Of a stretch of DNA of 64,000 bases, positions 31,593 through 64,000 are shown one piece after another. Each line of letters begins with the position of its first letter. Position 1 is the first letter of the stretch. The notes below the pieces were generated by a model. It worked only from the letters and a program-made list of their open reading frames with translations, searched no databases and was not told the DNA's origin. Both the position numbers and the translations under genes were made by a program. Source of the stretch: Acanthochromis polyacanthus (Eukaryota; Chordata; Actinopteri; Pomacentridae); NCBI RefSeq assembly GCF_021347895.1, contig NC_067122.1, positions 11,211,983 through 11,275,982 on the forward strand, read 5' to 3'.

Positions 31593-31644
<52 letters not shown>

Positions 31645-38128: not shown

Positions 38129-38171
<43 letters not shown>
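38008..38171 (+). repeat. CA-rich microsatellite cluster
   Basis: Three CA arrays (about 38008-38028, 38085-38106 and 38132-38171) separated by short mixed text. Confidence 0.9.
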
Positions 38172-38175
<4 letters not shown>

Positions 38176-39148: not shown

Positions 39149-39571
39149 CACTGACCAGCCACAACATTAAAATCACTTGCTTTCTGCAGGAAACCTCGGG
39201 GGTCTTAGCATTCATGTGGATGTTACTTTGACACGTAACTAAACAAACAAAGTGCACTCCTACAGCTAAACCCTAACCCCAGAAATTGCTTAAGAATAGC
39301 TTGAGGATCACAAGCAAGAGTTCACGGTGTTGACCTGCAAGCTCCTCAGATCCCAGTATGAGCTAATATCAGTGAGATGCACTGGAGAAAACCTGATCCT
39401 CAGCAACCTCAACCCGCAACCCAAAAGAACTAAAGATCCCTTTCCAAGGTCTCAGTGCCACACCGCAGGAAACCCTCACAGGTCCGGTATCCATGCCCCG
39501 ATTGGTCGGAGCAGTTTTGGCAACAAGTAGGGGATCTACACGATATTAGGCAGGTGGTTTTATTGGTGTGT
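39149..39571. mobile_element. Internally deleted TIR DNA transposon (Tc1/mariner-like)
   Basis: The left end cactgaccagccacaacatt follows a TA. The right side has gatattaggcaggtggtttta, the inverse of the known inner end of this fish family. Internal text attcatgtggatgttacttt and gacacgtaac, and near the right cggtatccatgccccg, match pieces I recall from full-length family members, in the right order with large gaps. It is therefore a deletion derivative with no coding capacity. Superfamily and right border are tentative. Confidence 0.62.
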
Positions 39572-42500
39572 CACTGCATTTCTGTTAGTTTTGTAATGCA
39601 GCTATAATTGTTAAATAAGCTATTTCATCCCATTTGTATGTTTTGTGGGAACAAATGCTCAACACATATCCGTTGTTCAGAGGTATTCACTGAGTTGACT
39701 TTAATGCATAAAATAGAGGCAGCCTATGGCATTTTTATTAGACAATAATTATTCAAAGTCCACACTTGACAGTTTTGAAGTTTAACAGCTGGATCCTCTA
39801 CATCTTGTCAATGTTAAAGAACAAACTTCCTGCAATGACTCCTGTCTTTGCCATGTTTTTTTTTACGATCCCTTCAAATTGAAGACTATGTACAATTTTT
39901 AAGAGTGCAGCCATGGCCAGAGGCGTGTAAATAAGCTGGGAAAAATGGCCACAATATAAAACATAGTTGTGGACTTCTAAATGATGTTTTTAGTGTTTAT
40001 CTTGGCCTAAGTCAGTCCAGTCACTACTTTATTAAGGCACAGAGATGTAGAGGGGGGCTGAATGGAGTGAGTGGGAGAATAACTGACAGGGAAATTGGCA
40101 GAGGGAAATTATTGTTATTCCACAATTAAATTATATATACTGGGTGGAATCACCCCTGACAGGGCTGACCATAGCAGCGCTCCTAATGTGTGCATGTGTA
40201 TGTGAGAGTGAGTGTGAAACTTTTATCCGACTACCAAGGCCACTGAGGCTATACTGGCAGGGAGGAGAATGTAGAAAGAGAATCGGAAGGAGAGCGAATT
40301 AAAGAGAAAGGAAAGTACTAACATCAACAGAGTGAAGCAAAAACAGTCTATTTTAAGGCTGAGTGGGTGTTAGGAAAAACACAGCAAACCCCCAGTAATG
40401 AACCTATTTTGAACAGTTTGTGACGACAACAGAGTATGTAAAATAAACCATCCTTGATTTTCCGCCGGGGAAATCGGACCGCAGTCACACTGTATGTTTG
40501 GGGCGAAAAACATATTGCAGATGCTGTGAAAAACCCTTTCATCTTCAATTTGGGCCATTTTCTCAAGCAGAAATCTGACCTTGTCCTTGTCTGAAAGCAT
40601 TAAAAACACACTGTCAAATGTGAAAATGAATGGGTTTCAGATATAAAAAATGGCCGCTCAGTCTTCATTCTTCATGAAACAATGACTCTTTGAATACACA
40701 AGGTTTCGGTGATATGTAAGTAAACTAGCCCTATTTTCTATCCAGTGAAATTAATGATCCATGAAACGTGGGCAAAAACAAAGAAGAGGGTTACACTAGC
40801 TTGTGTTGGTGTTGGCTTCAGCAGGCCACCAGAAAAATTAGATTGTAGTATAAATTTTAGAGATCCCTGGATTTTTTTTTAATGTAACAATGATCTCTCA
40901 TTTACTCATGTTTAACTTTTTTTCTGTAAAAAAAAAAAAAATGACTTGAAGCCATTTGAACAGTCTCACAGGTTCTAATAAGGAGTCATTATTTTTGAAG
41001 TATAATGTTGTATTTCTCCCTAGATCTATTGGGAAATTTCCTTTCTGCTTATTTTAATCATATAGGAGCAATACTGCCAAGATCTGTTTCAAGGTCATTT
41101 ACACCTCAAATTTGATCCATTTATTGCTTCATTACAGACAGATCTGATGGATGATATGTAGTTCATTTGCATTATCTCCACCTTGACTTTCTATCACTGC
41201 AAGCTAGTTCTGATTTGAAGATGTTGCCAGGAGATCTATCTTGCTTGCTGTCCTCTTGTATCAGGAAACAAAGTAGCTCTTGTATGGTGCACGTTTTCTT
41301 TAAAAGAGCACATGATGAGGGATCTGCTATATCTCCCCACCCTCCACATGTTTCGTATATGCAGCTTTATGAGTCCGTCAATGAAATCAGATCCCCCCGT
41401 GGATCACTTTGATGAAAAGCCTTTTTTTCTGCATGTGTTTTTTTTTCTCTCCTCTCATTTCTGTCTCCATTTCTGTGTGCAAAAATCTAGAGAGAATCAA
41501 TAAGTGTTGTGTTTCTTCATTGCGCCGACTGGGACTGCGTATGTGTTTGGTTGTAATGACAGTCAACCTTGTTTTTCATTCCACTTTAGGTCGATACTGC
41601 ATATGAGACAGAGTGTAGTTTATGAAGAGCTAATAGTCAGAGACAGCAGTGACCTGGTTATGAGCTAGAAGAACAAGCACATATCAAAGAAATGTGTGTT
41701 CATATGTGTGCGCATGAATAAATAATGAGTTAAAGCTCAATATGATGACTTTGCGCAACAGCGGCACCCTGAAGAGAAAGTTAAAATTCAGAGATGCTGT
41801 GTCTTAGTTTTCATCATGAAAGAGAACCAGTGATGTTAGCTTTATGTATATTATAAATTGTCTTAGTGAGCTTTAAAATTACAATAATTTCCTGAATCCT
41901 CTGTCCTCAAATAAAGAAAAAGCATCAAAAATACACAAAAGGGGCAATATCTCATCCACAACAATGAATTAGTTTCTTAATAAACTACATTAGATGATTC
42001 CTGTTGGTCATCAGCTCTTTACATAAATTTGTTAAAAATAATTTTCACAACCAAAGGGGAAATCCAAAATGGTTCCACATTTAAGTCATGAAAAATACTT
42101 TTCTGCCTCATTGTGATTTCTCAGAAGCACAAAATGTTAGTTTTTTGTTGGTTTATGTCATGTAATTTAGCAGTCTTTTTCAACCTTTCTGAATTGTGTC
42201 CTTTCAAAATAAAGCAATGTGTACTCCCTTGTCAGGTTTAATATTGTGCATTGTAAGCCAGGAATTGACCACCATAGATTATTTGTTGATTAATTTTAAA
42301 GTCCAATGGGAAAGCAAATATATTTATGTAAAAGTAGACATAATTTGACCATTTGCAGAATTTCTTTATCGTTTGTTTAGATACCTTCAGTCCCCTCAAA
42401 TTTATTTTGCCGTGTCTTTTAGGGTTCTTGACTCACAGATTGGAGCCGGTGTCATAGAAAAAAGTCTTTATTGTCTCAACTTACTTATTTATGGAAGGCT

Positions 42501-42662
42501 ATCAGTTCAGTTTTCCTCTGTAAAAATTTAAGGGCAAAAGGGAGCAAGGACTTGAACATGTATTTTGGATGAAATTTATTTGACATTTTTAACCGTCAGA
42601 CCAATAAGTGGCACCAAAGACTGTGTTTTTCTAACAATCAGTTTTTCTGTTTCTCTGTCCAG

Positions 42663-42733
42663 CACCCTCAACAACAACAACATCACCCTCATCCCGCTGT
42701 CCAGCTTCAACCACATGCCAAGCTGCGGACACT
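42663..42733 (+). CDS. slit3: slit3-like exon C: one LRR of D1, with 1-nt deletion
   Basis: Bounded by acceptor ctgtccag and donor gtgagt. Starting with the C that completes exon B's Leu codon, it encodes TLNNNNITLIPLSSFNHMP and then should read K-L-R-T-L into exon D. The sequence reads cacatgccaagctgcgg. A vertebrate SLIT exon needs one more A (ccaaag instead of ccaag), and the exon measures 71 nt where its neighbours are 72. Uncorrected, the frame shifts to SCGH and leaves exon D out of frame. Exon identity and borders are clear. I think a consensus error in an A run is likelier than a true null allele. Confidence 0.92.
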
Positions 42734-45109
42734 GTGAGTATAACGCACAAAGACACACCACAAATTACAAACATATACTACAGACACTGACACACAGACT
42801 GTGTGGTTGCACATACGCACATGCACACAGTGGTATTGGTTCCTGCTCAACATGCACTGAACACACAAACACACACACACACACAAACACATCATGGGCA
42901 GCAGAGCTTGTGCATGATCATCTAATCATGCCATAATAAGACACCAACTCTTCTATTGTTTCATGACTGTGAATAATCATGTGGCCAGTACAAACACACG
43001 GACGCACAAAGAGATGCACAGATACAGACAGGGAAGGAGATGGATGCAGTGACAAATATGTGCAGGCACCACACACATTGATACACACACACACACATAC
43101 ACACTTGAGTAATGGTAACCTCATTAATACCACAAGAAAGGCTTGTTTAGGCTCTACAGTTCAATCTGCTTTGATTCATTAGAGGAAACCTAAGTTACTG
43201 ATGGTACTGATGTAAGCACACACAGACACACACACACGCAGACACTAACAAACACACACACAGAGTTGTGCTCCAACACGCATCCCCGGCCAAATCATCT
43301 CCTCTGACTGATTTGAGGGGGGCTTTGATTTGTGTGTGTGTTATTTTCTGTGTTTAGTTGTGTGAAGGAGATCTTACAGTTGCCAAGGCGATGGCATGAC
43401 ATCTCAAGGGAGTTTCTGCCCATAATCTCGTGGGACTGTCTGAGAGGCAGACCATTGGTTGCGTTCCTGCTGGCCACACTGGGGTTGAATTCCGCCTAAC
43501 CAGCATGCACAGAAAGGGATTTCCTCCCCAAATCACCATTTTCAAGGGGCTCTGGTGTGGTCACACAGCCCTACTTAACATTCAGAAATGGGGATTTCTA
43601 AATACACAACACAGCTACATACAAGCAGGATAACATTTTGCAGACGTTCAGTTATCTTTCATGACCATATTTTTGTTGCTCATCTTTTGACCGACAACGT
43701 CCGTCAACAGCCAATCCTAAAGTTCCCATTTTGAGCGTACTACTGTAGTTCTAGTGGCGATACAACTTGAAATCAGCCCTTTAAAGCTGGATTTCAGGCA
43801 GCAATCCAGCTACACAGTTGCCAGCTGAGTGCAGAGTTACCAATACCCAATATTTTTTAATCAGAGACCCTCGTCTGCTTCTGTTTTATGTCAACAATGA
43901 GTGACTGCCTCCTCTGATTTCCTTGTTCCTCCTCCTTTCTTCTCTCGTTCTCAGTGTTTCTTCATCAAAATTCTTCCTTCCATCTTCTAAAAAAATGCTT
44001 TATTTTGTTTTCCCTTTTTCCTCTTTTTATTTTTCTCTAATATGTCTTTACTGTGTCCTCTTGCATTCCTTTTCTCCTTACTTTGTCTTCACCTGTCCTC
44101 TTGTCCGCTTTCATCCTCCTTTTCTGTCTTTCATCTCCTTTCTGTACATGTTTATATATCCGTTTACCCTCACTTTCCTTTCACTAATCTGCCTCTTCAC
44201 CCTCCTCATTCTTCTTCTCCTTCTCACCTCCTTCTCTTTATTAAATTTTGTGTTTGTATTGAGTTTGCGGCTTTTATAAAAATGACTCATTCAATCAAAA
44301 GTCTTGAAATATCCCTGATATGATTAGCAGGGAAAGCCTAAAAATGTGTGGAAACTTCTTTAGACACAGAATGGTTTACTTCCCCTGTAGCCTTTGGCCA
44401 GTGTTATATTTTCCATGTCAGTGAGTGTGCAAGGGGGACATGAAAGTCTGCAAGAGTTTGCATCGACCTCTCTGTGGATGTTAGCCTGCAGTCCAAAATT
44501 TGTGTCCACACGGGCTGTAGTGAGCATGCACAGAGTACCTCTACTGTGCATGTATGGAACAGAGTCCTCCAGTGGACCACAAGTGAGCTACAAACTAGTA
44601 TAATAGCAACAACTACTGTGTGTCCATGGCGACTGCAGCTGCCCTTGTTCACATACCCAAGGGAGTTTAATCGAGGCTGTAAGATTCTGTGATGTCTTCA
44701 TACATTTACAATGCATGTATTTAATTTCCATATTTTCTCTCTTAATAATCCACATTTGTCTCTGTGCTATTCTTCCACTTTTCTTTCTCTTTTTCTGCAG
44801 TGTCCATGTAGTCTATGAGCGGTAATAACATCACACCATGGTGTCTCTCATTCAGAAATCTGAACCACTGAAAAGATTACAACTCCTACAGCTTATGTGT
44901 ATGTGTGTAGATGTGTGTGTGTGTGAGAGAGATGCATACATATCAGACTCACACACACTCGCCAATCCACCACGCCCATCACCTTTAGTCACCCGCAACC
45001 AGTAAGCTCAATAGACACAATCACACTGACTTACAGCTACACACAAATACATTCCACACACACACACATCCACACAAACACAGCGCTTTCCCCATACCCC
45101 CTGCCTGTT

Positions 45110-45360
45110 CCCATTCTCCCCTGTGTTTTAATCCTACTTGTCAGTAATTAAGGCTGAGCCGGGGGTGGGCCAGGACGTGGCTATCTCCAGGCGGGGGTTT
45201 GACTATAAACTGGATTTATAATGGGAGAGCGGTATTAAAACCCACTGCCCCCGCTGCTAGCATCAATGAGACCATCTCTGTTCCATAACAGGATTTGTCC
45301 TCTGCTTTATTACAAAAGGAGGCCTGTCTTCTGAAAGGCTAGATATCCCGGCTGGCATAT
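45110..45360. promoter_or_regulatory. Possible conserved non-coding element (unverified)
   Basis: A block of higher-complexity sequence (cagtaattaagg, ggctgagccggggg, ctttattacaaaagg, ataacaggattt) directly upstream of the CT array and distinct from its AT-rich, CA-rich surroundings. It could be an intronic enhancer, but there is no direct evidence. Confidence 0.22.
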
Positions 45361-45410
45361 AATACGCTGACAAGACATTCTGCTGTTCATCCGCCCTTCT
45401 CCTCCTCTTC

Positions 45411-45418
45411 GTCTCTCT

Positions 45419-45480
<62 letters not shown>

Positions 45481-45496
45481 TCTCTCTCTCTCTCTC
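45411..45496 (+). repeat. (CT)n microsatellite
   Basis: Nearly pure CT array with two small interruptions (ctctcttctc near 45420 and tccctc near 45476). Confidence 0.97.
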
Positions 45497-46773
45497 AAGG
45501 TGTCAAATGCAGCCAGTGCAGCCTGTAGAGAGTCTCAGCTCAGTGAAAGAACACCTGATGCGTTCTATATTAAGCAGCACCTGTTAATTAATGCTTCAAG
45601 TGAAATTTAAAACCGCCTATTAGTGTAAAATGTTACTCCAAACTATGTAAAATAGCAAATGGCAATTCTCATCAGCATCTTCAGTGGCGTCACCCAATGG
45701 GAGACTCAGCTATAGCATTTAATTAAACTCACTTACAACATAATGCGAAGTTTAACATAAGTGCCAATTCATGGTTTCCACGTCCCCATGGCTGCAAGCA
45801 TCTGTGGGACATAAATTTCATTATCTGCCCAAGTCTGCTCAGGTCAGCGGAAATAGTCCTTATGAAAAGTGTGTGTTCTGTGAATTACCCCCAGCAACAA
45901 GGACTCTGGAAAAATAAGTTTCCATTGCTTTTTTCATATGTACATTTTCAGTGCTATGACCACAACAATGGAAATGTTAAGCATCTCTATTATATGAGAG
46001 TAGAGGGCAATACGAGAGATGAATACAGATAAAACCAAAACTTAGTGATGGGTAGATGCCAGTAGGTGAAAAAGTGCCTCTTATCTTTGATATCATCATC
46101 AAGGGGCACACCTCATTTAATCACATGTCCAATTCTAGCCTCAATAACAGCCAGCCAAAATGACCAAAAATACTCAAAAGAAATCAAAAATATCTTTCTC
46201 AATTCATTTATTTGCTCCCACGTCTCTCCCTCTGCTCATTTTCTGATTTCGGTTTCCCCTTTTAATTTCAGCTCCCGTCTCTATGTCCACTCTTTTCATA
46301 TTGTCCAATTAGTTCTTTACTTTTTTCAACCTGTTTTCTATTAAATTCAATTCAATTTCTTCACCTTTCCAATCTCTTTCTACTTCACTCTTCCGTCTCT
46401 CTCTGTTTCTGTAATTTTTTTTTTTGAATATGTGTTCTGTCTCTAAAGGGAGTCATATTGTCACAGACCTTCGAGAAATGACAGCGGAGAATATTACTGT
46501 GTGTCTTTGTGTATGAGCGCCTGGTTTTGTGTGTGTGTGTTCAGCAATAGACGCATGATCCTGGTCAAGGATGTAAGCTGTGTGAAAAATTGAACCAACT
46601 GTATTTGAATGTTAACTCAAACACATTTGCTGCCACCGAGTGAGTGTGCTGTGGATTAACGGAGCTTCTCTCCAAAGTCAAATATTCAGATTGGATAGTC
46701 GTCGCATATTCATTTGAAAAATTAAATGAAAAACAATATTTCAGTGTGCATTTCTTCCTCCTTCTCTTCTCAG

Positions 46774-46937
46774 CCGTCTGCACTCCAACAACCTCCACTG
46801 TGACTGTCACCTGTCCTGGCTCTCTGATTGGCTCAGAGCCCGGCGGGGTTTGGCTCCCTTCACCCAGTGCATGGCCCCCGCCCACATGAGGGGCCTCAAC
46901 GTCCCGGATGTGCAGAAGAAGGATTTTATCTGTAATG
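46774..46937 (+). CDS. slit3: slit3-like exon D: end of D1 with LRRCT cap
   Basis: This 164-nt exon has acceptor ctcttctcag and donor gtgagt. After the C that completes a split Leu it encodes [20 protein letters not shown], then an Arg-rich turn, [19 protein letters not shown], and KKDFICN. The CDC and the later Cys of TQC and FIC are the four disulphide cysteines of an LRR C-terminal cap. WLSDWLR is diagnostic of SLIT D1. CMAP..RG.NV.DVQKK is the SLIT3 pattern; SLIT2 has CMGP and VQKRE. The length and the phase-1 end equal the human exon as I remember it. It closes the first LRR domain. The following exon (spacer plus the D2 N-terminal cap) is not visible downstream in this window. Confidence 0.95.
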
Positions 46938-47557
46938 GTGAGTCGACATTAACACAGATAAAATAGATCCGACTCAAATATCACAGAGCTTTAATGGCAT
47001 GTCTTCACATTCATAGAATTACTAATCTTCAATGGTCTTTATTTCCTATCAAACACCGTTAACAAAGTGTTTTCACTGGCTTTAGAATGTAAAAATATTT
47101 ATGGAGAATATGCCGGTTTTGGTTCCCATGCGACCACATGTTAATACATCAACTATGATAGTGTTACAGAGAACTACACCACGTAAAATCCTACATTTAC
47201 TGCCACAAAGTTGACCTATTTAGCAACAGTGATATGCATAATGTATAATTTAGAGAGTGGAGTCAAGAAGAAGTTGACTGTTGACTGCGGTGCTGTTGAC
47301 AGCTGACTTTTTGACGCCTTGTTTAACCAAACAGACAATGTAGTTGACCTGAGGATCATCATTACAGGCGGTGCTGTTATCGGCTCCAGACAGCACAGCG
47401 TCGAGTTTATAACACTGAAAGAATTACACCGTGTAGAGCATGCAATCAGCCAAAAAGCCAGTAATGTTATCAGCTGCAGATAGTATAGGCAGTGTTTATA
47501 GGGCTCTGATTCAGCTCTCTGTGCTAATAGACTGTCAGGCTGCTTCTCTCTCTCTCT
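46938..47557 (+). other. slit3: slit3-like intron after exon D, clean part
   Basis: Ordinary intron beginning with gtgagt. Between about 47284 and 47510 it holds diverged repeats of a ~90-bp motif (gtgctgttatcggctccaga against aatgttatcagctgcagata). It ends in a short CT run at about 47547-47556, where the noisy duplicate begins. Confidence 0.75.
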
Positions 47558-48915
47558 AGTCCCAGCCTTTAATTTCCCTCTTATCCCACTTTATTTCCTC
47601 TTACATCTTTTCCCAACCCCCCCCCCCACTGTCCCTCCATCCCTCCTCCATTTAGAACAAGGTGACTCTGCAGTAAAAAGTCCAACACACTCCATTATAC
47701 TCCAAGAGTAACAAAAACTTCATGAAATTCCCTGTCCCTGGTGGACCAGCACTGATTTTCTCATATGTCTCTCTCTCCCTTCAACGCTTTGTCTCTCTCT
47801 CCTCTTTCCCTTGCGTCACCCTCTCCTCTGTCGTCTTTTCACTGCCTCCTACTCTCAATACATGTCTCCCCTCTTTTTGGTCTCTCTCACTCTTTTTCGA
47901 GGGTAGGGTCTCTATCTTTTCTCTGGTATTGTTCCTTTCATTGCTGCCCAGTGGCTACCATACATGTTGCCGTTTTATTGGAATTTTTTTTTTTTTTTTT
48001 TTTTGTCTTTTCAACACAAAACAGCCACACACAGCCATCACACCACACACACCCACACCCACACACACACCGCACACAGACCCTTTTCGACCCCCACTAT
48101 CAGATGACTGCTTTGGCTGAACATGCAAGAACTGGCAAATACGATTTTGTATTCCTCTGCTAACCTAGGAAGACAGGTATATGCCATAATAACCACAAAT
48201 TTTCCCCGGGGTGTTGTGTTGCTGTCCTATGGCATTGTGCTGATGCGAGGTCCTGTCATCCATCTTACTCAACCTGTCAGTCAAACTACTAATGAAGTAC
48301 GTAAATATGGGAAAGGTTTGAATGTGACAGAAAACACTGTGGCAAAGAATTCTTTAATAATAACGTTCATATTTTTTATTCGGCTTAGACCGTGCATCAT
48401 ATCTTGGATGCCTATCTTTACAATATTCTTCTTATCTAATCAGATTTTCTAAAATTCTGAATCCTCTCAGCATTTCTTATCCTGTTGAGACCGTCGTCAA
48501 TGTCTTCGCCTCTCGCACAAATGGCTCGAAAATTTACTCACAGTCTGTGAATAGTGGTCCGGTGTCCTGTCGTCCTGCTGAGGACTAGATTACAAAGCCC
48601 CGGAATGTTCACACCACTGGAGATAGGGTCATAACCCCATCTGAAACAGATTAAGACTCGGCACGGAATCCCAGCAGATCATATTTGTTCTATACCAAAC
48701 GAATGTCCTCGGCAAGAGAGTGCAATAGTCCTATATAATTCTCGCTAACAAAAAAAACCAACAAATAACAATTAATTTTTTTTTCCTCTTTTTTGCACAT
48801 CCGAAGGGACAAAGTACATACTGAGAACAAAATACGAAAGTAGCTCCTAAATAGCAACGAAAAGTAACTCTCTGTTTGCCTCAGACTGACCTGACACCTT
48901 TGCAATACCCCACCA

Positions 48916-49814
48916 ACCATTAGACACATTGAAGAAATTACAAAAAATTTTCAAAATGTGGGTGGGTTGGAGATTCCTGAAGTTTAATGGATTTCTCAGT
49001 ATTTGAGTATGGTATACTGCAAACTACCCTTGGTGGCACAGTGTCAAAAGATGCGAAAATGGATGTTTTTATTATTTTTAAGCATATCACACTACTGCAA
49101 GGCATTTGCACTGACTATCTATTCCTTTTTGCTTTAATGTTGGTCAGCTGCAGTTTCCTCGCCTGCAGGCTTATAAACTGGCATTGTTAATTGGTTGACA
49201 ACTTTTCCACAGAGGAAGTACATTGTTTTGTGCATCTTCATGGATTATGTATCAAACTATACACATGGTTTGATTTAAATTCAGCAATGTGCAGATCATT
49301 GTTGGTTGCTATTTAACAATAGGTTTTTATGAGTTTTTAAAGGCCTCTTAAACATGTTATATGTATTTTTTTTTATATATATATATTATATAATGCCCTT
49401 ATCATAAAGCAAATAAGCAGTCAGTCCCCAATTGCCTGTAAGCATTTCTGCCTAAAGCAAAGTGTACTGGTGGACAGCCATTAAATACTGGATTTCAGAA
49501 TTAACCTGGGTCTCATATAGAGCAATGGCCGCATCAAGATTCAGTTTTGGTTTAAACACATATGGCTGGATTAACTCCATAGTACAGCTAGCCCTTGTGT
49601 GGAGTTTTGACAGTGTTGAGAGAGTCGTAGTTGAGGCTGGTTTGCTTTATGCCTTTTGTAGTAGTAGCAAAGGATGGGGTGAGGAAGAGGAAACTTCAAC
49701 AGATCTGCACATTCTAAAGAGAAGCAACAGTGGTAGAGTGATATCAAAGTCTTTAAGGCCAAATGGATTTTATTTTTATGACCAATGAAAGCCTTTTCTA
49801 GTTGGCAGTTTGGA
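48916..49814. other. Copy-specific block of about 0.9 kb
   Basis: Within the noisy copy this block replaces about 90 bp of the first copy (about 6843-6930, which includes the fish repeat fragment). It is AT-rich, with ttatatatatatatt near 49371-49390, and no coding signature or terminal repeats that I could recognise. It could be an insertion in one haplotype, a deletion in the other, or foreign sequence. Confidence 0.6.
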
Positions 49815-52800
49815 TATAAAGGGATGGAGTTTCTAGGACTTTACCAATGACCCAGAAGAATTTATCAAGTGTCCATGTTGTTATATAGAAACTAGCAAAG
49901 CCGAAAGAGTATTACTGATTCCTCTGACCAATCAACAATTTCTTTAATGAATACATGTTCTACATCTATGTTATCTTTAAAGTTTCCAAAATTTACACTA
50001 TTTACCAGAGCCAAGAACAGAAAGGATTGGGTCACAAATTTCATCTTTTCAACAATTCATTGAACTAACAATATGTGCATCAGTTTGGGGTCGGCAGAAA
50101 GATGAAAAACAAATCTATCTTGAAAATGTGAATATTTAATCAAATTCACTTTATTTCTCATGTCTTATAATGTGGGCAAAATAAAGTGTTTGCCTTAAGG
50201 CAGAATTTTGGTTCAAAATAATAATTAAAAAAAAGTTCGCCTTGGTGCTAAACAGAAAGCCTACTAGGGACCTCAGGTGCATCAACAGTCATAATGATGA
50301 AAATCTTTGCATCTTTGGCTTAAACTGGGTCAGGTGAATGTTAGACCTTAAACACAGAACGCCGCTGGAACAAGTTTATGGAAGCAATTAAAATGGAATA
50401 GTTCAATAAAATCAAATGGAAGTGGAGCCCCAAGTATTTTCCAGTATTTCTTAACATCCTGTTGCTGGGCAAAAATGGTTGTACAAATAGTTGGGGTTTT
50501 TTTGTTTGTTTGTTTGTTTTTTTACATTTTTAACAAAAAAAATAAATTATCAAAAGAAATGCAACTTTTCTTTATTCTTTTTTCATTCTGGCAATTAGCT
50601 GTTTGCAACTGCACTTCCTGGTTGTGCTGTTTGTGAGCCCACAGTGAGTAAAAATGTGACAACAAAACACGGGTCAGGGGCTTTAAAAAACAGATTCTTG
50701 CATGGCTTTCTGTGATTGGTTCAACAACAGCAAACCACGAGAAGCCCTGATGCAATGTTCACTCAGATTCCAATTTCAATTCGCAATTATGAATATACTA
50801 TTTTAAGTTTATTATTAAGACATACAGGCGTTTACTACTTGCATTCAATACTTAGCTACTGGTGTTGGTCCTTTTGGCTCATCGAGGAAGATATCGATCC
50901 TCCAACAGTTACTGTATATTGTACAGGCTATAGTCACGCTTTTAAATCACAGGCGATAAAATGTGAGTCCAGTTCGTGTTTGGGAAATATACGCTGTAGC
51001 TTGGATTTGCATCGAAGCATGGACACATCAGATAAGGTGCAGCTGTTTCATATGCCCTCACATTACACCCTGCAGTGCCCAACAAGACACACCTTTTATC
51101 TTTTTGCAAGCCATCCACGTCCTATATTGTTTAACTTTGTTTTTCCATTCTGCCCTGTTCTTTCTTCGCTTCTCTTACCCACTTTTTATTGTTGATAAAT
51201 TTTAATTCAGTTTCCCACCGCTGGGTCCCACCCTGCCTGCACATCGACACAACTCAAACTACCTCAGGTGCTTTGGAGAAATGTTTCACAGTGTAATATG
51301 TTAATTTCTTTCAGCCCAAATAGCAATACAAAATAACACAAGTTAAAAAAAAAAATATCAGTGCAAGGGTTTTTTTTTTAAAAAGCACCCCGTGGTCTTT
51401 TTACCTTCTCCTTCTTGTCATCCTCTCCTTTCTTTCTCCCTCGGTTAACCTCCCAATGCCTTATGCCTTCTCACATTTGCAGTGCAGGATGGCCGTTTTT
51501 GTTTTTGAATTATGAACTACATCCGCTTTAGAGAGAAGGTGAGAACATTGTGTCGTCGCGTGCAACACATAGCCAACACCAGCGCGTTGTGTGGTCCTCT
51601 GCCATTGCAGATGTTTGCCTTTCAGTCTTTTTCTGTTTACCAAGAATTTCAACAATGGACAACTTGGAAGCCAGGCCTGAAAGATAACACCAAAAGATAT
51701 AGTAACAAGCCTCATTTTTCCTACAGGGCGTAACGCAGTGAAAGGTAGAGAAATGAAGACGTGATAGCTGGGCTTTCCTCGCAAGTTGGTTTACTCCAGA
51801 TTTCCATCATCCTTTGGCCCCTACCTTCGCATCTGTAAAATGGCAGGGAACGTGGCTAAATTCAATTAAGGTCATGATCAGCAGAGACCAGGGAGAATGT
51901 CAATCGCTTTGTCTGTTGTATCATATTTACGTAGGTTAGACAGCATATTGTCCCTAACAGTTGTAATTTTTTCATTGGAGTGAAAGGCTTTGTAAATTCA
52001 GTTTCGATGTTAATTTACTTAAACCTCATACAGGAAAAAACACTTTAAATATATGGTTTAGTTCCGCCTAGAGTCCAGACTGAATTAGAATTCTGGTTTT
52101 GTGGAGCTGCCCTTTGGTACAAACTGACTTTACATTTGACAAATATGTTTTCTCTTTTCAGCTGTTATTTTTTTTCTGGCTTGATTGATTTCTAAAGCAA
52201 CGTACATTCTATTCATTTTGACGAATCTCAAGTTGATATGAAACCACTAGGTGTCCTTGGCAGCTGTTCAGATCTCAGTTCAACAAGAAGTGGAACAGTG
52301 ATTATGGTGAAAACATGACATTAATTCCTGTATGCTTGGACATCCCCTGAAGCTAATTTGTCATTTGCCCAAGTCAAAGGCCCTCTTCCATATGTTCGAA
52401 TCCTATTTATTTGCATTAATTGCCTCGACGTCAAATGTCCAGATGGTATCACGCTGAATGGCACCAATGATCAGAATACTTCGTTAAATGGTCACAAAGA
52501 GGATTGGGATTGATGAGGGGAAATCCTCATATGGTTACGTCATCCAGCCTCTACTGCTTTCTAAACTAACAAATAGTCTTTCTCAAATTTCCAGTTGGGA
52601 AGCAATAAGATCTCCAACATGCACACTCTAGTTGAAACAATAACACTCCCTAAAGAAACAAAGAATTGCAGCAACTTCCAAAAGCAGGTTTTTTCTTCTA
52701 AGTTGTTTGAGTTTGGTTTCACTTCAAAAACAAAGTGGAAAGTTGGGTTAAGACTAAAAGTTTATAGCAAGAAGAATTTAATTAACTTTTTTTTTTTTAA

Positions 52801-54773
52801 ATTTTATTTTCTGGTCAACCAATTTTCTTGTAATATATACAAGTTCCACCTCAAGTCAATAGCATTCATAAAATTAAACCGATATAATGTAATTGTAACA
52901 TTTTCCCGCACAGCTGCTCCTCTACAGAATTCAAACTAGCAGAAGCCATAAAGTCCCTGCCTAGTTGAGCACCAGACAATTATCAACAAATGCAGTCTTC
53001 TTGCTTTAATGTTAAACCTAAAAAGTCTCTCGTGAATTTTTTGGAAATTTCTGCTGTGATTTGCTTGGACAATGGCCTGAAAAAAACATAGAAATGGCTT
53101 TGTTGAGGTTCGTTCAGTATAAAAAACAGCCAAGCAATCAAGTTTTTATTTCACTTTGGGTTTTCCAGCATGTTCCATCCACCATTCATTCTTTTCACAA
53201 AAATATTCTGCTTCAAGCCTCATTTTCAAAATTTCCAAGCAAAAGTTGTTATGATTTCTATTAGCTGGCATGTTAATTTTCTGATTGAAATGAGCAATGT
53301 TTGTTGAAATGCACTGGATGGAAACATAGTTACAGTGTACTCCTTCTGTCGTCCCTGTTCTTCCATTAATTAGTTAACTGGTTCACACTGAAAGATTCGT
53401 CGCAGCGGCCAAGTTGTTGCAGTGTGTGTTTTAATGTGTGGGTGTGTGGCTTCCCAGTGTCCAGATGGTAGCAGAGGGAAGCTTTGGAAATCAGTTTTGC
53501 CCAATAGGCCCTTATGATAGGACAGATTAAACACAACTAACTAAATTATATGAAAGGAAATAATTTTTGGGCCCCTCCTGGTCTTGTCAAACATCCAATG
53601 AGTGGAAACACAACGACAGCACACAAGGACTATGATGCACATGATGGTAACCAAATACAGAGAGCCCACACAGAGAAGTCGCCCTCATTGCCAGATTATA
53701 CATCATGTCACCGCTAAATCAGGGTGCTTGGTGAACAAAGCTGTCAGAGGAATCCAATCATAATCACAGATGATGAAAATCCGTTTTACCGCGGATTGAA
53801 GAATTGGAGATGAGTACATGGCCTAGCAATACCGATCAGTTAGTTATTCCTCTATCTGGGAATTACAGGTGGTGAGGTTTCAGTCAAGGAGAAACTTATA
53901 AACATCTCTCGGAGCTGATCAAAACAGTCCTATAGAGTTTGAAAATTGAATGGTCTGAAGATATTTCCCCCATTGCCTGAGAGTCCTTGTTAGCTTTGGA
54001 AATGGTGAGATTCCTTCTACTCACATTAAGGATTATCATGTGTCCAGCGTGACATAGTGGGTGTTGAAAGAGCCAAAACCACGGAGCAAAATTGAGGCAT
54101 ATTTAGTGTTTTGTCTGCCAGCTTTCATTTAATTGTTTAGTAACTTTAGGCCAACCAAACGTTGACTAGGGAAGCTTCATGGTCAACAGTTTCACTCGTT
54201 TGGTCAGACCGTTTTCATGTCAAAGGCAGCTTTTACCCCTTTTTTAAAAATGTTTTTGTTTTTATTATATTTATTTTTTTAGAAATAGAACAGTCAAATA
54301 GTTTATCTCTAGAAGTGATAACTTTAAAGGCTGTTACGTGGAGGCCCTTGTCAAACAGCTTCACATGCTGATGTTTTAAGCCTAATCAGCAACCAGGTCA
54401 ATCTTCACAGAATTCAGAGTTTTAAAATCTGGTCCCTCTGTGGACATTCCTCCACTGGCGGACAGGTACTGATGTGTCTTACATTATCAGCAATGGTTGG
54501 TTTTCCAGAGCAGAAGAGAGGAGCAACCATATCAAGAGATGGACCGAGACAACCATGGTAAAGCCATTGTTGAGGACTGGGAAAGCACATGAAGGAGCCT
54601 CTAATGAATAACTCACATTTGAAAGGAAAGGATTATAGTTTCTGAAAGCAGAAAATAATACCGAGCGTTGGCATTGGGTCAAATAACGCATCAACAGTGT
54701 AGTATATTACTTTTCATGGCCAGAAAGGGGAGACAAAAATTAAACAACCTTGGAGATTAAGTATTGATGAATT

Positions 54774-54968
54774 CAATTGTCAAACTCATTTTTTTCAGGG
54801 TTCACTGGAACTGAACAATATGGTTTTAACTTTTAGGAGGATCAAAAACAACTTGTCAATTACATGTTTGCAGTTAATTTGTTTTTTCTTCCCTCTGTAA
54901 TTTTACACTTTTGTAAGTAGCCCACGGACTTGGACTGGACGCCTCTAACAGCCCAGTTTGACACTCTG
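54774..54968. mobile_element. Shortened counterpart of the hAT element
   Basis: The ends caattgtcaaactcatt and gtttgacactctgg match those of the element at 12327-12743. About 220 bp of its middle is missing. The neighbouring bases gatgaatt and gaataatg fit the aged flanking duplication. Confidence 0.7.
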
Positions 54969-57900
54969 GAATAATGGTCGCATGCCTGGTAATTTCTTTG
55001 CGAGGATATACCATCCTGTCAAGCAGACATTGATTTTGACTGATTTTTGCTAAATCCCAGATTTAACTGGAAATGTAGTCTTGTTGCAAGTGCTTGGGGG
55101 CCTGAACTTCCTAGCTATGGTAAAGTTTGAAAGTTTATAGTGTTTGAAAGGGTTGATAGGTTAGACAAAGATTGTAATTATGATTTAACTAAAAAAGTGA
55201 ATAGCAGTTGTGAATTTCAGTCCCTCCTGCCTGACTGTCCATCAAGATGTGCCCTTTCTATTGTAACACTTGTTAATTTGATCAACATGGGATAAATCCC
55301 TGACAATATTTATCGCTGTACTTCAGATTCTAGACTCAAAAAGAACAGTACTGAAAGTAGACAGGCGTTATAATGAGGTCAACTTTAGCAGTTGCGCAGC
55401 AACAAGCTCATATTGGCTGATCAGGCGTGTGCCAGTTTGCTTTCCTAAAAAATAAATAATAAATAAAAAATTACATGCCTTTTTAATTACAATACCAAAA
55501 CAAATGGGCCCACAAACCCATAATGTTGATAATCCCCAGAACTTCCACTTAATTAAATTTTAGACCTCCATTCCATTTTAACAAACAAAGATTGTCCTCA
55601 CACCAAATTCAAGCCTCATTTTTCAACAAGTGGTTTAAATAAAAGAAAAAAAAAACTCTTAGCTTTACTGACTTTCGACAAGGCCAAACCTTATCAGATT
55701 ATTTTTATACGTGTGTGCTTTATATCACGGGGTCCGGTTTAGTGGTCCACCACATCGGTTTGGGGATTCGTCGTAATCTTTCGCAAATCAAAAATTTATA
55801 AAGAGGCGACGTGGTACGATGGCGAACAAACCTCTTTAAAATTTCTTTCCTGAAATCACCTCTAAAAAAATTAAATTTGCAAAAATTGCCAAAGGTTGGA
55901 TTCAAAAACAATCTCAATCAGTTTCTTGAAAGCCTTGGAGGGTTGAAATAATTATGTTGCGAGCCAACCTTTTGGGCCCCCTATTGGGGGCACCCCCCAC
56001 AAAAAGAAAAAGTGGTTTAATTTATTTTACTTGTCTTTTTGAAAGTCCAAAATCGAAATTCCCAAATGCCCAAAACTTGTTAACAACCTGGCAGTCGGTC
56101 AATATCAGGATGAAAAACATGAAAATGTGGCTTTCCTGTGGACTGGTTTCTGTTACACACACTATAGTGGACACCCAGTTGCCAAACATTTTGAGGGGGT
56201 TTGGGCAAAATAAGATCTCAAATTTTGGAAAATATAACCATTTAAAAAATTAAAAATGAAAACATTTTTGGGTGGGTTTTCTTTTGAATTGTAGTTTTCT
56301 TGAGTTTTTTTTTTAAGTCCCCCCCCCTAAAATATCAACAGGAAATTTTCGTGTTTTGTGTTATGACTGAAGACCTGTAAAATAAGAATAATTCTATTGT
56401 ACACTAAACCATTTTAATGTCCGTTTTTTCACATTTTTCTCTTGTTTATTCTTTTTCGTATTTGGACAATCCAAAAGCGAAACCCAAAACTTTTTTTTGG
56501 GGGCCTTCTTTGGGCGATCTAACCTGTTGAAACGGGCAGACATAATATTGAAGGTGTGCCTGTGGTGCAACTATAGTAAATATAGCTTTTCAGACACTCC
56601 TGAGGACTTCTCGCCTCTCAGATTCCTTTTCACAGACTCACACGGGTGAAATGCATACAAACAAATGTGCTGCCCCCTGAAGCTTCCGATGTATATTCTG
56701 TGGCTCCACAGAAATCTGGCTTCTGTTTTGGGAAGGCCCAATCCTCTCAGGGTTAAAAGCTGACATCGACTGATATAAACATGGGGTGCTGCAGTGTGGC
56801 GAGCAGATCCAGGGCTCTGTAGAGAAGAAAAAAAGGATTTAAAAGGTTGATAAAGAAAAAGGGGGAAGAAATGGATTAAGCAATGGATAGATAGAGTTGT
56901 GATAGAAGAGAAAAGGTGAAAGGGGAATCAAAGATTGAGAAGAGAGGAGAGGGCACTAGGAGAGAAAAAATGGATTATGATGGAAGAGAGAAGAGGACAT
57001 GAAATGGAGAAGACGAAATGCTGGAAATATGGGGAGAAAAAATAAAAAGGAGAAGACAGGCGCAGGAAGTAAAAGAAAAAGGGATTTAGCAATGGGGGGG
57101 AATCTAGAGGAAGAGGGAAGATGAGATGGGGATGGGGGACAGGGGAAAAGGATTAAGGTGGATTGTGATTATGCTTTTATGTTCTAAATGTCTGGAGAGC
57201 AGACAGTAACTAACAAAACCTCTGTTTCTGACAGTTGGTGCACAATTTGAAGTTTCTTCCTTTTTACTGCATGAATCTGCGATTGTGTGTACCACGCTGT
57301 GCTGAGTGTGTAAGAGGCTAAATGCCAACTCATCCTTCTCAGTTGTTGTAAAGAAAACACGAGAAAAGCTGGAAGATACTTTCAAAAATGTGTCTGCCCT
57401 TTGTGTGCTTTCTGTGTCTGCGATCCATCTATCTGCCTCGCCACGGCAGAAGAAGACGCAGAGGGATGGATGATGGGAAGGAGGAAGGAAGAGAAGAAAG
57501 GGAGGAGGGAAGGGAAGAGTGGAGGTTTTCACGGTTTGTTGGGTTTCATGGAAAAATTGGTGGATGTGCTGGTGAGGGGCCTGAATACCTAGAGCAGAGC
57601 GAATTAAAGTAAAAGCTAAGGATGGATGACAGTGGGGTAATGCAGGGTGCATTTTTCTCGTGGGTAGTTAACCTTTGGCAAACACAAAGGTTTATCACGT
57701 TTTAGAATCCCCTCGATGCATGGGGGGGAGTTGTAAAAAGGGGGAGAGATAGAGGCCAGGGTTAGTGATGAGAGAGAGGGTAAGATAGGGGAGGAAGGAG
57801 GGTGCCCAAAGTCTGAGAAGGAGAACGGGAAAAAAAAAAAAATAAGTATATTTGATTGTATATTGCAGTAGTATTGTCGGTGGATTAGGCCATGTGAATG

Positions 57901-58649
57901 TTTTTTTTCACGTGGAGGCACCATGCGGTCTTTGTACAGTCGCGGCGTTGTATTCTTTGATTAATAATCGTGAGGGCTTTTTGCTTGTCTCTTTTTAAAT
58001 GGAAAGTTGTGTCATGGATCGTAGAAGCGCCGCGTAAAAGGCTCCTTTAATGATTGTGGCTGGGCCTAATGTTATGTAAATTTACTCCCTCTTTCACTAG
58101 CAAGAGAGGAGGGACAATCAATTAGTTATTATTAAGTTATGAAGGGCATGCGCATATCAGGCGAGTGTACCGGAGCAGTTTGGGTAGACAGAGTTCTTGT
58201 GGGTCTAGTCGTAGGAGGCTGACATTTGCGGGAAGAGTGAGAAATTGTGTATATTAATATTTTCTTAGTGCGTGTGATATTTCGTACATAAGCTAGGGTC
58301 TGGGCTTTAGTTATGGCATATGGCCTCGCTTCGCTCTGCCTCTTCATACTGTGCTGCCCTCTCTCGGTCCCTCTCTCTCTTCTTTCTCCTGCGGTGCAGT
58401 GTGTCGCTTGTTGGGTTGTCCATGTTTTCGTGCGTTGGTTTTTTGGTGGGCGTGTCGTGCTTTTTTATTATATCCATAATACGTAAATTGTCACTATTTG
58501 ATGGAACCGGAGAGGAGCGAGACTATGGTCTTGCCATGCTCTTGACTAGGCTGTACGCCAAGGCAGCGCCACTTCAGTGCACCGGATTTCACTCTCTGGG
58601 CTCATCTGTTTCCTCTCCTCTCCTCCTCAGTGCATGGCCATATACTAAG

Positions 58650-60640
58650 ACAATCGAGCAGATGCTGGTCACAGCTTATCGACTCTCATCAACTCTCCTA
58701 CTCCTGAAAGTACTTAGCTTATCCCATTCCTGATTCTTAAAGATCACGCAACATTCTGCAACAGATCACCACCCGCTATGCCACCGAACGACACCAATTG
58801 TCGCACCTCCTAACAGGTACTAAATTCAACACGACACAACAATAAAACAACCAACAACCCGGACTCTCATCTGGACTCTAGTGAAAAATAAGAATAAAAA
58901 ACCATAACAGCTAGAGTGTGTGTGAAGTATTGTACTGTCAACAAGTCACTTTGTGGAGCCAATAGTTCCGCTCGCAACATAGTAGTGATGTGTAATGGCA
59001 GCATGCATAACCCCGAAACAATGACAAAAATAAACAAAGAACAATACAAGAATAATTAATATGAAGCTAATATCCCACGCATGCAATCAGCACCTTTATA
59101 TCAACACGGACCACCACTAAACTACTAACATGACAATACTATAGATCCCAACAAACCACAACTAAACCAATATACCCAATAATAAATAATAATTAATCAA
59201 ACAGAGCGAATTACATTACCCCGTACACAATCACAGAAACAAATCTGTACCCCTGGACCCCTGTTATTCTCAATCACCACAACACACACGCAAACTATAT
59301 CAAGAAGAAAAATCCAACGATAAGAAAATTAAAAAAAAAAACAACAACAAAAAACCCAACATAAACCACCAACGAGTAAACAAATACCCACTTCAAATAT
59401 CATAATGCTAACTTTGTCCACACTGCTATAACCCTCGACCAAACTTCAAATTCACATATGACTTACACAAGCTGAAGCTCCACACCGACAAATATATTAC
59501 AAAATCCTAACAAACAGCCAACAACAAGACAAGAATAACAAATAATCATAATTCACTCACAAAAAAACATAGTATCAATTCACAAAAGAACCTCTCCCCT
59601 AGAAGTTAAGTTGAATTCTTAAAATAGACTACAAGATACATTACAAAAATATCAGAATTCAGTACTCTCATCCAAGTCTTATATTAACAACATAACTTAT
59701 TTCTCTTTCATTGCGTAAGCATCACTCATACGCTGTTTTATATCACTCACTAGAACTTCTCATGTCATAAAACTAATCCCATTTTTGTGTCTAAACATAG
59801 CACTTTGACTACATCTACCTTTGCGGCTTCTCTCTAACAATCTTACAGATCTGTGGAAGTTCCTCTGTCCACCCATCCTTCTGCTATCATAAGCTCATGC
59901 ACACCAGCGCTCACCTAACGAACTCTCTCAAACACTCACCTCCAAACAGAGGCTAGCTGACTATTGGTATCCCAGCATGGTTTACCAAAGCTGATCTGAT
60001 GCCGGCATTGCTCTATTAGAGTATCTGAATCAGTATTTAATGTCTTGTCCCATAATGGCTTGAGCTGATGCGCAATTGGCTGGGATCTGCCTTTCATTTC
60101 CACTGCTTATGGATGACAAGCGCATTCATTACTTTCGATTAGTATTTCCTCCACCAGCACGAGCAGAACCTAGCAACAGACATCTGCGCCTGACTTTCTC
60201 TCCCATCTCTCTCTCATACGCTTGTGTTTAGTGTCATAAAAGAATAACATGTGTGAATCCATACCTATTCGCTGGCTGTAAACTAAGGACAGACAATGAT
60301 TCACAGGCTTGGATTAATCAACCATGTTGTATAGTTTTGATTACATGTCCATAGGAATGCACACATGCTCTCTGCTGAAACGATTTGGACATGCGAGGAT
60401 CCCACAAATTTCAGCACATTGCGACCATCGTAAGATGGGTCTTTTATCTTCACGCAGCCCTACGAGGAACCAGGCTCCCTACATAATAGCAAGGGAAGAG
60501 GCGAATCTGAAAGAGGTCCAGTTGCGTGTGAATAGGTAACAAACAAAAAAAGCAACCGCTTGGTAGTCTTCCGATCTCTCATCATTGTTCTAAAAGCTCC
60601 TCCTTAATCTATATCACATCACTTTTCGATACCTCTCTTT
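58650..60640 (+). other. Scrambled A/C-rich expansion in the noisy copy
   Basis: The first copy has about 490 bp between the matching anchors (about 15740 and 16230); here there are about 2.0 kb. Much of 58740-59700 is A- and C-dominated text without repeats or genes. Recognisable islands remain, such as agtatttcctccaccagcac near 60140 and gcgcctgactttctctcc near 60187. Confidence 0.65.
60388..60535 (+). pseudogene. Unrecognisable counterpart of slit3-like exon B
   Basis: By position this should be exon B. Only scraps align: ttggacatgc, catcgtaagatgg (against catcgaagatgg) and gaatctgaaag before ataggtaacaaac. The reading frame, the acceptor and most LRR codons are lost. It is not a usable exon as written. 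Confidence 0.35.
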
Positions 60641-61454
60641 CTTTTTAGTGTGCTAGTGTATACTGTGAAGTCAGGAATCATGTCCTGTGCGTGCTCCCTC
60701 TTCTGCACTATCAGTACTTTTTCTCTTTTTCCTGGGTCCTTTTTCACTATTTTCTAGAGGTTTTTTCTTTCATTCAATCCATTTCCCTCTCCTCCACCGC
60801 TTTTCCCCCTTTTTTCCTTTCGTGTAAAAATGTTTTCATCTTCCCTCTCCTTCTCACTTGTGGTGTCCGTGTCCCACATCCTTCAATCTATCTTCTGTCT
60901 CCTTTTCATCCATTCTCTCCTTTCTCTGTGTTAGAAAGCTTTAAGTTAAAGGCCATTCAGTAAATCAGTTTCTTTTTACTGTTTTTGGTGCGGCGGAATT
61001 TTCTCCCATTAGAAATTTATCCTTGTGTGTGTGCGTGTGTGTGTGTGTGTGCTGTAGGTGCAGTTGGTTCTAAGTTCTTTTTTTCGGGTGCCGCGCAATG
61101 CTTTTTGCCAGGATGAAAAAGCCGTTTTATTGTATCCTTTGTTCATGTACAGTTCAGCAAATGTTTAGTCGTTTGACTTACACACACACCACAACACCCA
61201 CGACACACACACACACCGATCACAAAGAATTGAAACAGTGTATCTTGCCCCGTGCTGTGGTTTTGCATTTCTTTTACACATTGTGTTAATGTGTGGATTG
61301 ATTCCCTAGTGAATTGGGACACGTTATAATGTTGCACGTGTTATGGTTCCGCTGTGTGGTGCTGAGCCCGCCGTGTCACTTGTGTGTCGTCTGTAGCTTG
61401 CACCACTGCGTCAAACTGGGAGTGTGTACCATTTGACCACAGCATACTCACATA

Positions 61455-61655
61455 CTCAGTCTAGAATGATAATAGATAATATAAGATAGCATCCAATGAC
61501 ACGTTACTGTATAAGATCACTGCATTCATCAATACACACTTGAGTGACTTGACAGGTTGAGTTTAGTGGAAGACAGGGACCTGCCGTCAGCACAATGCAT
61601 AGGACGGCAACACCACACCAGTGTATGCATTTCTGTCTCTTATTAGCAGAGGATT
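61455..61655 (-). repeat. Inverted third copy of 6195-6480
   Basis: Read on the minus strand it follows 6195-6480. The clearest part is gacaggttgag...cctgccgtcagcacaatgcataggac, the reverse complement of about 6265-6320, ending in ttagcagagg. It interrupts the copy of about 16830-16873, after which colinearity resumes at gatctgtccagattt. A forward copy of the same segment also exists at about 48150-48470. Confidence 0.75.
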
Positions 61656-64000
61656 CGTGTGCGTACTGATCTGTCCAGATTTGCTTAGAGCTGCTCATTG
61701 TCACTATGTCGTATTTTGCAGGTTCCGCACCATCACAAGTCAATCTTCGGGTTGTTCTGTGTGATTGGTGCTTCAGTAGGTGGGGGTGACTTGGTCCCGT
61801 TTCTCCACTGGAATTGCCGAGGCGCAGAACATAGGAGTGAATTATACGGAAAAAAAAGGATAGAATCACACATATTCTACTAGTATAATCGTGTCGACAC
61901 CAAAGCTATTGCATGGCCACCTTGTGTGTGTTCCACTTGTGACAACAGAACAAGGATTGTGAGTGATAGAACTAAATAGTGCTTTTTTTTTTTAACTGAA
62001 ACAGATGCCTGCAGTGCTTTGTCTGTCGTGCATCTACCTTTAATCACTGCACTGAAGAAGTGAGACTTCTAAAAGAACGATATTCCTTCTGACTAAAAAA
62101 CTGACAGAAAATGTCAAGGAAGTTGTGGTGTCTTGCCTGGGTGTGGAGATATGTGATCGCGAATTAACAATGAGCGAGAGGAAGGATGAGGAGGAGTGAA
62201 GCAGTAGTGAATAGAATCGAACGGAGTAGCTGGTTGAGTCGTGGCCATGAGACACAGGGAAAGAGAGTTAGAGAGACCAAGAACAATGTGAGTTAATGTG
62301 TGTATAGGAGGCGAGACATAGTGGTTGATTTGAAGGACAGAAATGTCAAATCGGACTGTTGTCCTACGCAAGGTGGAACTAGAAAGTCTTATTGGGAAGG
62401 TTCTGTATTTGTGTTTGTCTTACTCTGTGAGGTATTAATAGGATTTGGTGAAATGGGAGCTTTTAAGATGCGGAGTTTCACTCGTTTATGTTGTTATTGT
62501 CTAAGATATTGTTTAATAGAGGCAAAATATACTGAAATTAGGTTGAGATGAAGAAAGAGAAGAATAAGAACAGAAGGTAGAGAAGAAGAAAGAAGAGGCG
62601 ACAGCAAAGAAGAAGGATGGATGAGAGTTAGAAGAAGACCGGGGAGGCGATTAGCACTTGTCCCAAGACTTTCTAGGTCTCGCTCCTCGGTACATTGTCA
62701 GTGGACAAGTGGCTTTCGAGGGATTGGAGTTTTAATATACTAGTGTTGTTTGATCCAGAAGTAGACGTGGATGAGACACATATAGAGCGTGCGAGTTGAA
62801 GGATTTGAACCAACCAGGACGTTGTTTGATTTGCATGGCTTTAAACACATGTGACAATAACAGATGCTTTAAATTTTATATGTTAGGCAGCTGAAATCGT
62901 CTAATTGGCTGCTCCTGGAGGGAAATTCCCGTCTCATTTCACACAAAATCTACTGTAACACCAAGCAACGTGTTGGGAGAAGGCTATTAAAAGCAGGATT
63001 ATTAATATAAAATTTAAGTCTGTGCTGAGGGACGATTACAAAAACCGGTGCAGCATTTTAATGAAATATCTGTGTTAATTCCAAAATCTATTGGTAACAA
63101 CGAGTTCTCCTAACAAGTTGTTAATTAAAAATGAAAAAAGCAATTATTGAACCACTGAATCCCCCATTTGTCTGTTTTTTAGACATTCGGTGTTTTTTTA
63201 CTTGAGATCACCAATTTAAAGATGTGGGAATCAGTGATAGGATTTAGTTTTTTTAAATTTTAATCATAATTAACAATGGTAATTTGTGGGGGTGTAGCCC
63301 TTCTCAAGCCAAGAATTCCCAAGCACGTGTCAGGCAGATTTTCTTTGATTAGTATCCTGCTGTAGTAAGGCTGAATTTGGTTCCTGGGTGCCAGTCCCCC
63401 GCGGGTTTGTTTTTGGTTTCCCTAATGTGGGTTCACTTGAAAAAATGATAGAGAGCAAGAGGAATAACAAAAGTGGTTGAAATGGTTTCAAATAGATTGG
63501 AAGCCCCTTGCTGGTAAAAGTCCAAAATGCAACCGTCCCCCCGCTTCCAAGCAGTATTCTTGAAAATTTTTCATTTCCCCAACCTGCCCTGATTTCTTCA
63601 TCCTCACGTTTAAGTTCCTTTCAAGTAAGTTACTTTTTTGGATTCCCCTGGCCCCTCCGCTTTTTTTGCACAGCCGCAACAATGAAAAAGTGGAAATTAG
63701 GGGGCAGATACGAGGGGGATCGGGCAGTTGGCGAAAGATACAACATATTAGCTTCAATAAGACTCTGACCAGCTGAGTTGGCTCGGCAAGGATTTTTATT
63801 ATACCATTCCCTGTAAATAACACGCAAGCCGTTGCCCTTGCCAGCGCACGCATGAAACGCACAACAGTTATATTCCAACTGAATGTGACGTTATAAAGGC
63901 GGTTGGTGTGGTGTTGGCGTTGTTGTGGTTTGGTGTGGGGGGTTTGGCCCGGTGGCGTGTGGGTGGGTTTGTGGTTTTACTTGTGGTATGCGTTTGTGCA

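What the first reader, a model, noticed from the sequence alone, without database searches (positions are those of the whole stretch)
47558..64000. Second, error-laden copy of a 13-kb slit intron segment placed downstream of exon D
The block repeats 5556 to about 18660 in order and orientation, including intron sequence on both sides of exon B. It carries dense single-base indels in place of the substitution pattern of an old duplication. It would put sequence from the exon A-B-C introns after exon D. Raw long-read gap filling, or a retained second haplotype, explains this better than biology, and any annotation of the region would be misled. A true decayed duplication remains possible.
Basis: partly seen in the sequence, partly recalled or inferred. 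Interest (0 to 1): 0.8.

Follow-up and report, generated by a model that had tools for sequence, protein, structure and literature searches.

The report
False tandem duplication inside slit gene
Part of a slit gene seems to occur twice in a row, most likely because two overlapping assembled pieces and uncorrected long-read sequence were pasted together, so it is probably an assembly error and not a real gene duplication.

Summary
Window 5552-47551 recurs at 47558-92970, about 29 kb past the window end. The second copy has two parts. Window 47558-67883 is noisy: about 71-88% identity depending on stretch and aligner, with dense indels and bursts of extra bases. Exactly 25 N follow at 67884-67908. 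Then 67909-92970 matches 22463-47551 at 99.1%. Of the last 1,000 reference bases before the Ns 880 match; of the first 1,000 after them 998 match. The bases flanking the Ns are homologous to 22462 and 22463, so nothing is missing there.

Best reading (inferred; no reads were available): two contigs overlap by 25 kb, were placed in tandem, and uncorrected long-read sequence was pasted between them. Slit exons agree. Exon C is 71 nt in both copies, each lacking a base that the other has; exon D is 164 nt in one copy and 163 in the other. Eleven slit LRR exons picked outside the duplication are all multiples of three. Three other slit-like loci each have one strong exon D match.

This is a known artefact class. 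Read platform, haplotype and the N-free join at 47557 remain open. A real duplication is unlikely (about 3%).

The parts
627..698 (+). slit LRR exon A, 72 nt, outside the duplication
5552..47551 (+). first (reference) copy of the duplicated segment, inferred right part of contig 1
16085..16156 (+). slit LRR exon B, 72 nt, in frame
42663..42733 (+). slit LRR exon C, first copy, 71 nt, lacks one base that the second copy (88079, beyond the window) has
46774..46937 (+). slit exon D (LRR C-terminal cap of the first LRR domain), 164 nt; second copy at 92195 is 163 nt
47552..47558 (.). join without Ns between the first copy and the noisy block
47558..64000 (+). noisy block, inferred uncorrected long-read sequence; continues to 67883 beyond the window (homologous to 5552-22462), then 25 N at 67884-67908 (L009:3884-3908), then clean second copy 67909-92970
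48920..49802 (.). 883 bases in the noisy block where the first copy has 76; 3' part is a dispersed repeat, 5' part has no other match found
58640..60040 (.). mostly extra sequence in the noisy block, partly A-rich; holds an inverted copy of the same repeat at 59598-60050

Best explanation
An assembly artefact: a false tandem duplication of about 42 kb inside one slit gene. Shown: clean sequence to about 47557; a 20.3-kb noisy block that repeats 5552-22462; 25 N; clean sequence that starts at the homologue of 22463, overlaps the first copy for 25 kb and runs on into further slit exons. Inferred: two contigs with an unmerged 25-kb end overlap were scaffolded as if adjacent; a gap filler (or an unpolished read end) supplied uncorrected long-read sequence that reaches leftward from contig 2; it was placed between the contigs and the remaining gap was written as 25 N. 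The true locus most likely holds this segment once, with exons A-B-C-D followed by the exon now at about 93.7 kb.
For: (1) Quality jumps at the N run: last 1,000 reference bases before it 880 match, 76 mismatch, 44 deleted, 64 inserted; first 1,000 after it 998 match, 2 deleted. (2) The 25 N are flanked by bases homologous to the adjacent positions 22462 and 22463. (3) Whole block: 967 mismatches, 736 deletion events, 1,568 insertion events; 2.38 indel events per substitution against 0.42 (one simulated old paralogue) and 4.72 (one simulated CLR-like read). Error per 200 reference bases ranges from 7.5% to 479% with inserted bases counted, median 24%. (4) The clean copies differ by 18 mismatches, 98 deletions and 80 insertions in 25.1 kb, indels clustered at about 70-75 kb and 85-93 kb, as poorly polished contig ends could look. 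(5) Exon C lacks one base in each copy, a different one in each; exon D is 163 nt in the second copy, 164 in the first. (6) Eleven slit LRR exons picked outside the duplication are 72, 75 or 144 nt. (7) Of 18 genome matches to exon D, two near-identical ones (100%, 98%) are here; three other loci (C3 twice, C15) have one match each at 57-68%, the other 13 are 33-41%. (8) Published passages describe such errors (PMC9516828; PMC8081667; PMC9635638).
Against: No reads were available, so depth and spanning were not tested, and contig borders are inferred. The block joins the first copy without Ns although it is collinear with the second; a real duplication or a chimeric read would explain that join more simply. 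Isolated substitutions in the block are transition-rich (45 to 28, ratio 1.61); none of 12 simulated settings reached that (0.31-0.79 without true divergence, 0.69-1.24 with 2-6%). The block has two repeat-bearing insertions that the first copy lacks. The second copy of exon D, 24 kb inside the clean stretch, is also short by a base, so errors are not confined to contig ends.
Confidence: 0.94

Rival explanations
1. Real recent tandem duplication of 42 kb inside the slit gene, with the second copy's first 17 kb known only from uncorrected reads. The repeat made the assembler break, and a raw read truly bridges the copies.
For: The join at 47551-47558 has no Ns; the order first copy, second copy, downstream is what a tandem duplication gives; the right 25 kb are 99.1% alike.
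Against: Exon C would be frameshifted in both copies and exon B unreadable in the second; divergence steps at the N run; if the copies were one event old, the insertions and extra substitutions of the noisy block would not sit beside 0.07% mismatches in the clean part. None of these excludes poor sequencing of a real copy.
Confidence: 0.03
2. Old decayed duplication.
For: Overall identity of the noisy block is in the range of an old paralogue; isolated substitutions are transition-rich.
Against: The same duplication is 99.1% identical from the N run on; indel events per substitution are 2.38 against 0.42 in a simulated old paralogue.
Confidence: 0.01
3. Same false duplication, but made without a gap filler: the noisy block is an unpolished chimeric or low-quality tail of contig 1 that the assembler itself left, trimmed against contig 2.
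For: The block is attached to the first copy, not to the second, and the Ns lie on its far side.
Against: Its last base is homologous to the base just before the first base of the clean stretch, which a filler or a trimming step explains but an independent contig end does not.
Confidence: 0.2

Closest known systems
False duplications in vertebrate assemblies, heterotype and homotype (PMC9516828, PMC8081667; passages)
   Same: End-to-end copies on one scaffold, an assembly gap between them, poor consensus, duplicated exons of one gene.
   Different: A long stretch of read-quality sequence lies between the clean copies as well as a gap; read depth and k-mers could not be checked.
Over-filled gap of a long-read gap filler such as PBJelly (PMC3504050, PMC9635638; passages)
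   Same: More sequence placed than the gap can hold where contigs overlap, and a residual N run of 25, the length at which PBJelly starts to count a gap.
   Different: The fill is on the first contig's side of the Ns although collinear with the second; the tool actually used is unknown.

Membership tests
False duplication (heterotype or homotype) | Near-identical copies on one scaffold | tested here: met
   22463-47551 against 67909-92970 at 99.1%
False duplication (heterotype or homotype) | Gap or incorrectly filled sequence between the copies | tested here: met
   25 N at 67884-67908, preceded by 20.3 kb of noisy sequence
False duplication (heterotype or homotype) | Haploid or lower read depth and discordant reads | not testable with these tools
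   no reads available
False duplication (heterotype or homotype) | Heterotype or homotype by single-copy k-mers | not testable with these tools
   no reads; indirect signs point both ways
PBJelly-type over-filled gap | Fill of raw-read quality | tested here: met
   fills by LR_gapcloser, PBJelly, TGS-Gapcloser and FinisherSC had mean identities of about 78-97% in the passages of PMC8848313
PBJelly-type over-filled gap | Residual gap of 25 N | tested here: inconclusive
   25 N found; PBJelly defines a gap as 25 or more N. That it writes 25 N into over-filled gaps is recalled; one search for 'PBJelly' with '25 bp gap' found no paper
PBJelly-type over-filled gap | Fill attached to the contig whose end it extends | tested here: not met
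   fill is collinear with the second clean stretch but joined without Ns to the first
True tandem segmental duplication | Divergence even along the copies | tested here: not met
   step at the N run from 880 to 998 matches per 1,000 reference bases
True tandem segmental duplication | Accurate reads spanning the junction | not testable with these tools
   no reads available

The most novel reading that the evidence does not exclude
A real, very recent 42-kb tandem duplication that repeats exons B, C and D of one slit gene, giving a first LRR domain with two C-terminal caps, hidden behind poor sequencing of the second copy.
Probability: 0.03. Interest if true: 0.5.

Novelty: not a real feature. 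Interest (0 to 1): 0.1.

Why it matters
A gene model or duplication call at this locus would be misled: exon C is frameshifted in both copies, exon B is unreadable in the noisy block, and three exons seem to occur twice. The test that exposes it needs no reads: a step in quality at an N run whose two flanks are homologous to adjacent bases of the other copy. If the reading is wrong, it would be an unusual exon duplication in an axon-guidance gene.

Tried and rejected
Old decayed duplication: rejected because the second copy is 99.1% identical from the N run on and by the indel profile. Fold-back read (missed adapter): the noisy block has two inverted self-matches (59598-60050 with 49472-49970; 61545-61643 with 48186-48283), but forward matches to the first copy lie between them and one is a dispersed repeat, so no simple fold-back. 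Platform: left open; neighbour-copying insertions and no excess of deletions in homopolymers look CLR-like, transition-rich substitutions and slight homopolymer shortening do not. CpG context of isolated substitutions: 14 of 73, no background computed, so no conclusion. Source assembly: not identified; one search by size words gave three papers, none of which I could tie to it. Which slit paralogue this is was not settled; the name rests on LRR exons, on Slit chains among the structure matches of exon D and on recalled exon layout. A third copy of exon C was not excluded by a DNA search, because searches did not complete; the exon D search shows two near-identical copies.

Limits. Simulations are one replicate per setting with rates that I chose; they show direction only. 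The windows under 15% and under 22% error are selected (2,400 and 6,900 of 16,911 reference bases) and are not used for the main counts. The eleven outside exons were picked by eye from the list; the entry at 126587 was left out because its end is unclear. The output was cut, but the rows used are at its head. One search scored 40 of 83 candidates.

Full report
Observation. The window is C10:11211983-11275982 of an assembly of 956,771,783 bases in 81 contigs. Self-alignment confirms a same-strand, collinear repeat of 5556-18616 at 47561-63914, in eight pieces at 71-79% identity. With 60 kb upstream and 80 kb downstream added, the repeat extends to 92970 against 47551. The window edge had cut it.

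Anatomy, left to right, in window coordinates: unique sequence with slit exon A at 627; first copy 5552-47551 with exons B (16085), C (42663) and D (46774); a join without Ns at 47552-47558; a noisy block 47558-67883; 25 N at 67884-67908; clean sequence from 67909 that matches 22463-47551 at 99.1% up to 92970; then unique sequence with further slit exons from about 93.7 kb. These 25 N are the only N in the 204 kb examined.

Why an artefact. The noisy block ends at the N run, and the clean sequence begins at the next homologous base, 22463 after 22462. Of the last 1,000 reference bases before the run 880 match; of the first 1,000 after it 998 match. A change of divergence exactly at an assembly gap is best read as a change of sequence quality. 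Over the whole block there are 967 mismatches, 736 deletion events (1,590 bases) and 1,568 insertion events (5,004 bases), or 2.38 indel events per substitution; one CLR-like simulation gave 4.72 and one old-paralogue simulation 0.42 with the same scoring (0.16 with a scoring that favours substitutions; the block, in selected windows, 1.21 with that scoring). Single-base insertions copy a neighbouring base in 457 of 825 cases, against 697 of 1,071 in the simulated read and 72 of 290 in the simulated paralogue. Error per 200 reference bases, inserted bases counted, has a median of 24% and runs from 7.5% to 479%.

The clean overlap. A global alignment of the two clean copies has 18 mismatches, 98 deletions and 80 insertions in 25.1 kb; a few of these lie just past the homologous end. 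Indels cluster at about 70-75 kb and 85-93 kb. The quiet middle, about 76-85 kb, has seven mismatches, six of them transitions, and two microsatellite length changes; these look like true variants between two haplotypes or copies.

Exon evidence. Exon C is 71 nt between AG and GTGAGT in both copies, and each copy has the base that the other lacks. Exon D is 164 nt in the first copy and 163 in the second. Exon B is not recognisable in the block: best local score 74, shuffled mean 70.8 and maximum 94. Eleven slit LRR exons that I picked outside the duplication are 72, 75 or 144 nt. In the genome, exon D has 18 matches: two near-identical ones here (100%, 98%), one each at C3:24.40 Mb (68%), C15:11.41 Mb (61%) and C3:31.44 Mb (57%), and 13 at 33-41%, several at the same loci and so probably other caps of those genes. 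Of the 58 matches to the first kilobase of the block, only the block itself and the first copy cover most of the query (40 of 83 candidates scored).

Mechanism (inferred). Two contigs with an unmerged 25-kb end overlap were placed in tandem by scaffolding, and uncorrected long-read sequence reaching leftward from contig 2 was placed between them. Published passages describe the elements: false duplications separated by a gap or joined by incorrect gap filling (PMC9516828); homotype duplications at contig boundaries about as long as reads (PMC8081667); over-filled gaps that expand assemblies (PMC3504050; PMC9635638; PMC7757076), with one 779-base over-filled gap in a cichlid assembly (PMC4580222); and low-identity fills by several tools (PMC8848313). 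Of all seven papers I saw passages only. One search for 'false duplication' with 'slit3' found no paper.

What does not fit neatly. The block is joined without Ns to the first copy, though it is collinear with the second; in a standard over-filled gap I would expect the Ns on the other side. Isolated substitutions (six matches on either side) are transition-rich, 45 to 28, ratio 1.61. Twelve simulated settings gave 0.31-0.79 without true divergence and 0.69-1.24 with 2-6% divergence, so neither random read error nor my mixture reproduces it; transition-biased read errors would (recalled as typical of nanopore reads, not tested). The block has 883 bases at 48920-49802 where the first copy has 76. 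In the stretch searched, 48900-49800, the 3' part matches 18 other places on many chromosomes and the 5' part none. An inverted copy of that repeat lies at 59598-60050, in a stretch with no other genome match at the search's threshold. A further extra stretch near 61.5 kb holds an inverted match to otherwise unique sequence at 6263-6325. These could mean a second haplotype, another read platform, or a poor or chimeric read. They do not by themselves favour a real duplication, because the right 25 kb is almost identical.

Verdict. Real as an observation, ordinary as an explanation: most likely an assembly error, three times longer than first seen. The odds given are my judgement.

Noticed in passing
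L022:9746 to L021:1391 and L017:2851-4496 (upstream of the window): Two inverted copies of a 1,646-bp element, 99.0% identical, each with 215-bp terminal inverted repeats; a peptide in one resembles a Tc1-type transposase (name recalled).
   Followed up: no
48920-49802 and 59598-60050: Copies of a dispersed repeat in the noisy block, in opposite orientation, not at the matching places of the first copy; weaker related matches at 22754-22921 and 68200-68350.
   Followed up: partly
59000-59600: A-rich, G-poor stretch in the noisy block (A 44-49%, G 7-8% per 200 bases), probably junk base calls.
   Followed up: partly
61545-61655: Inverted match to otherwise unique sequence at 6196-6325 (77%) inside an extra stretch of the noisy block; unexplained.
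   Followed up: partly
42663-42733: slit exon C of the first, better copy also lacks a base, so gene models here would be wrong even without the duplication.
   Followed up: yes
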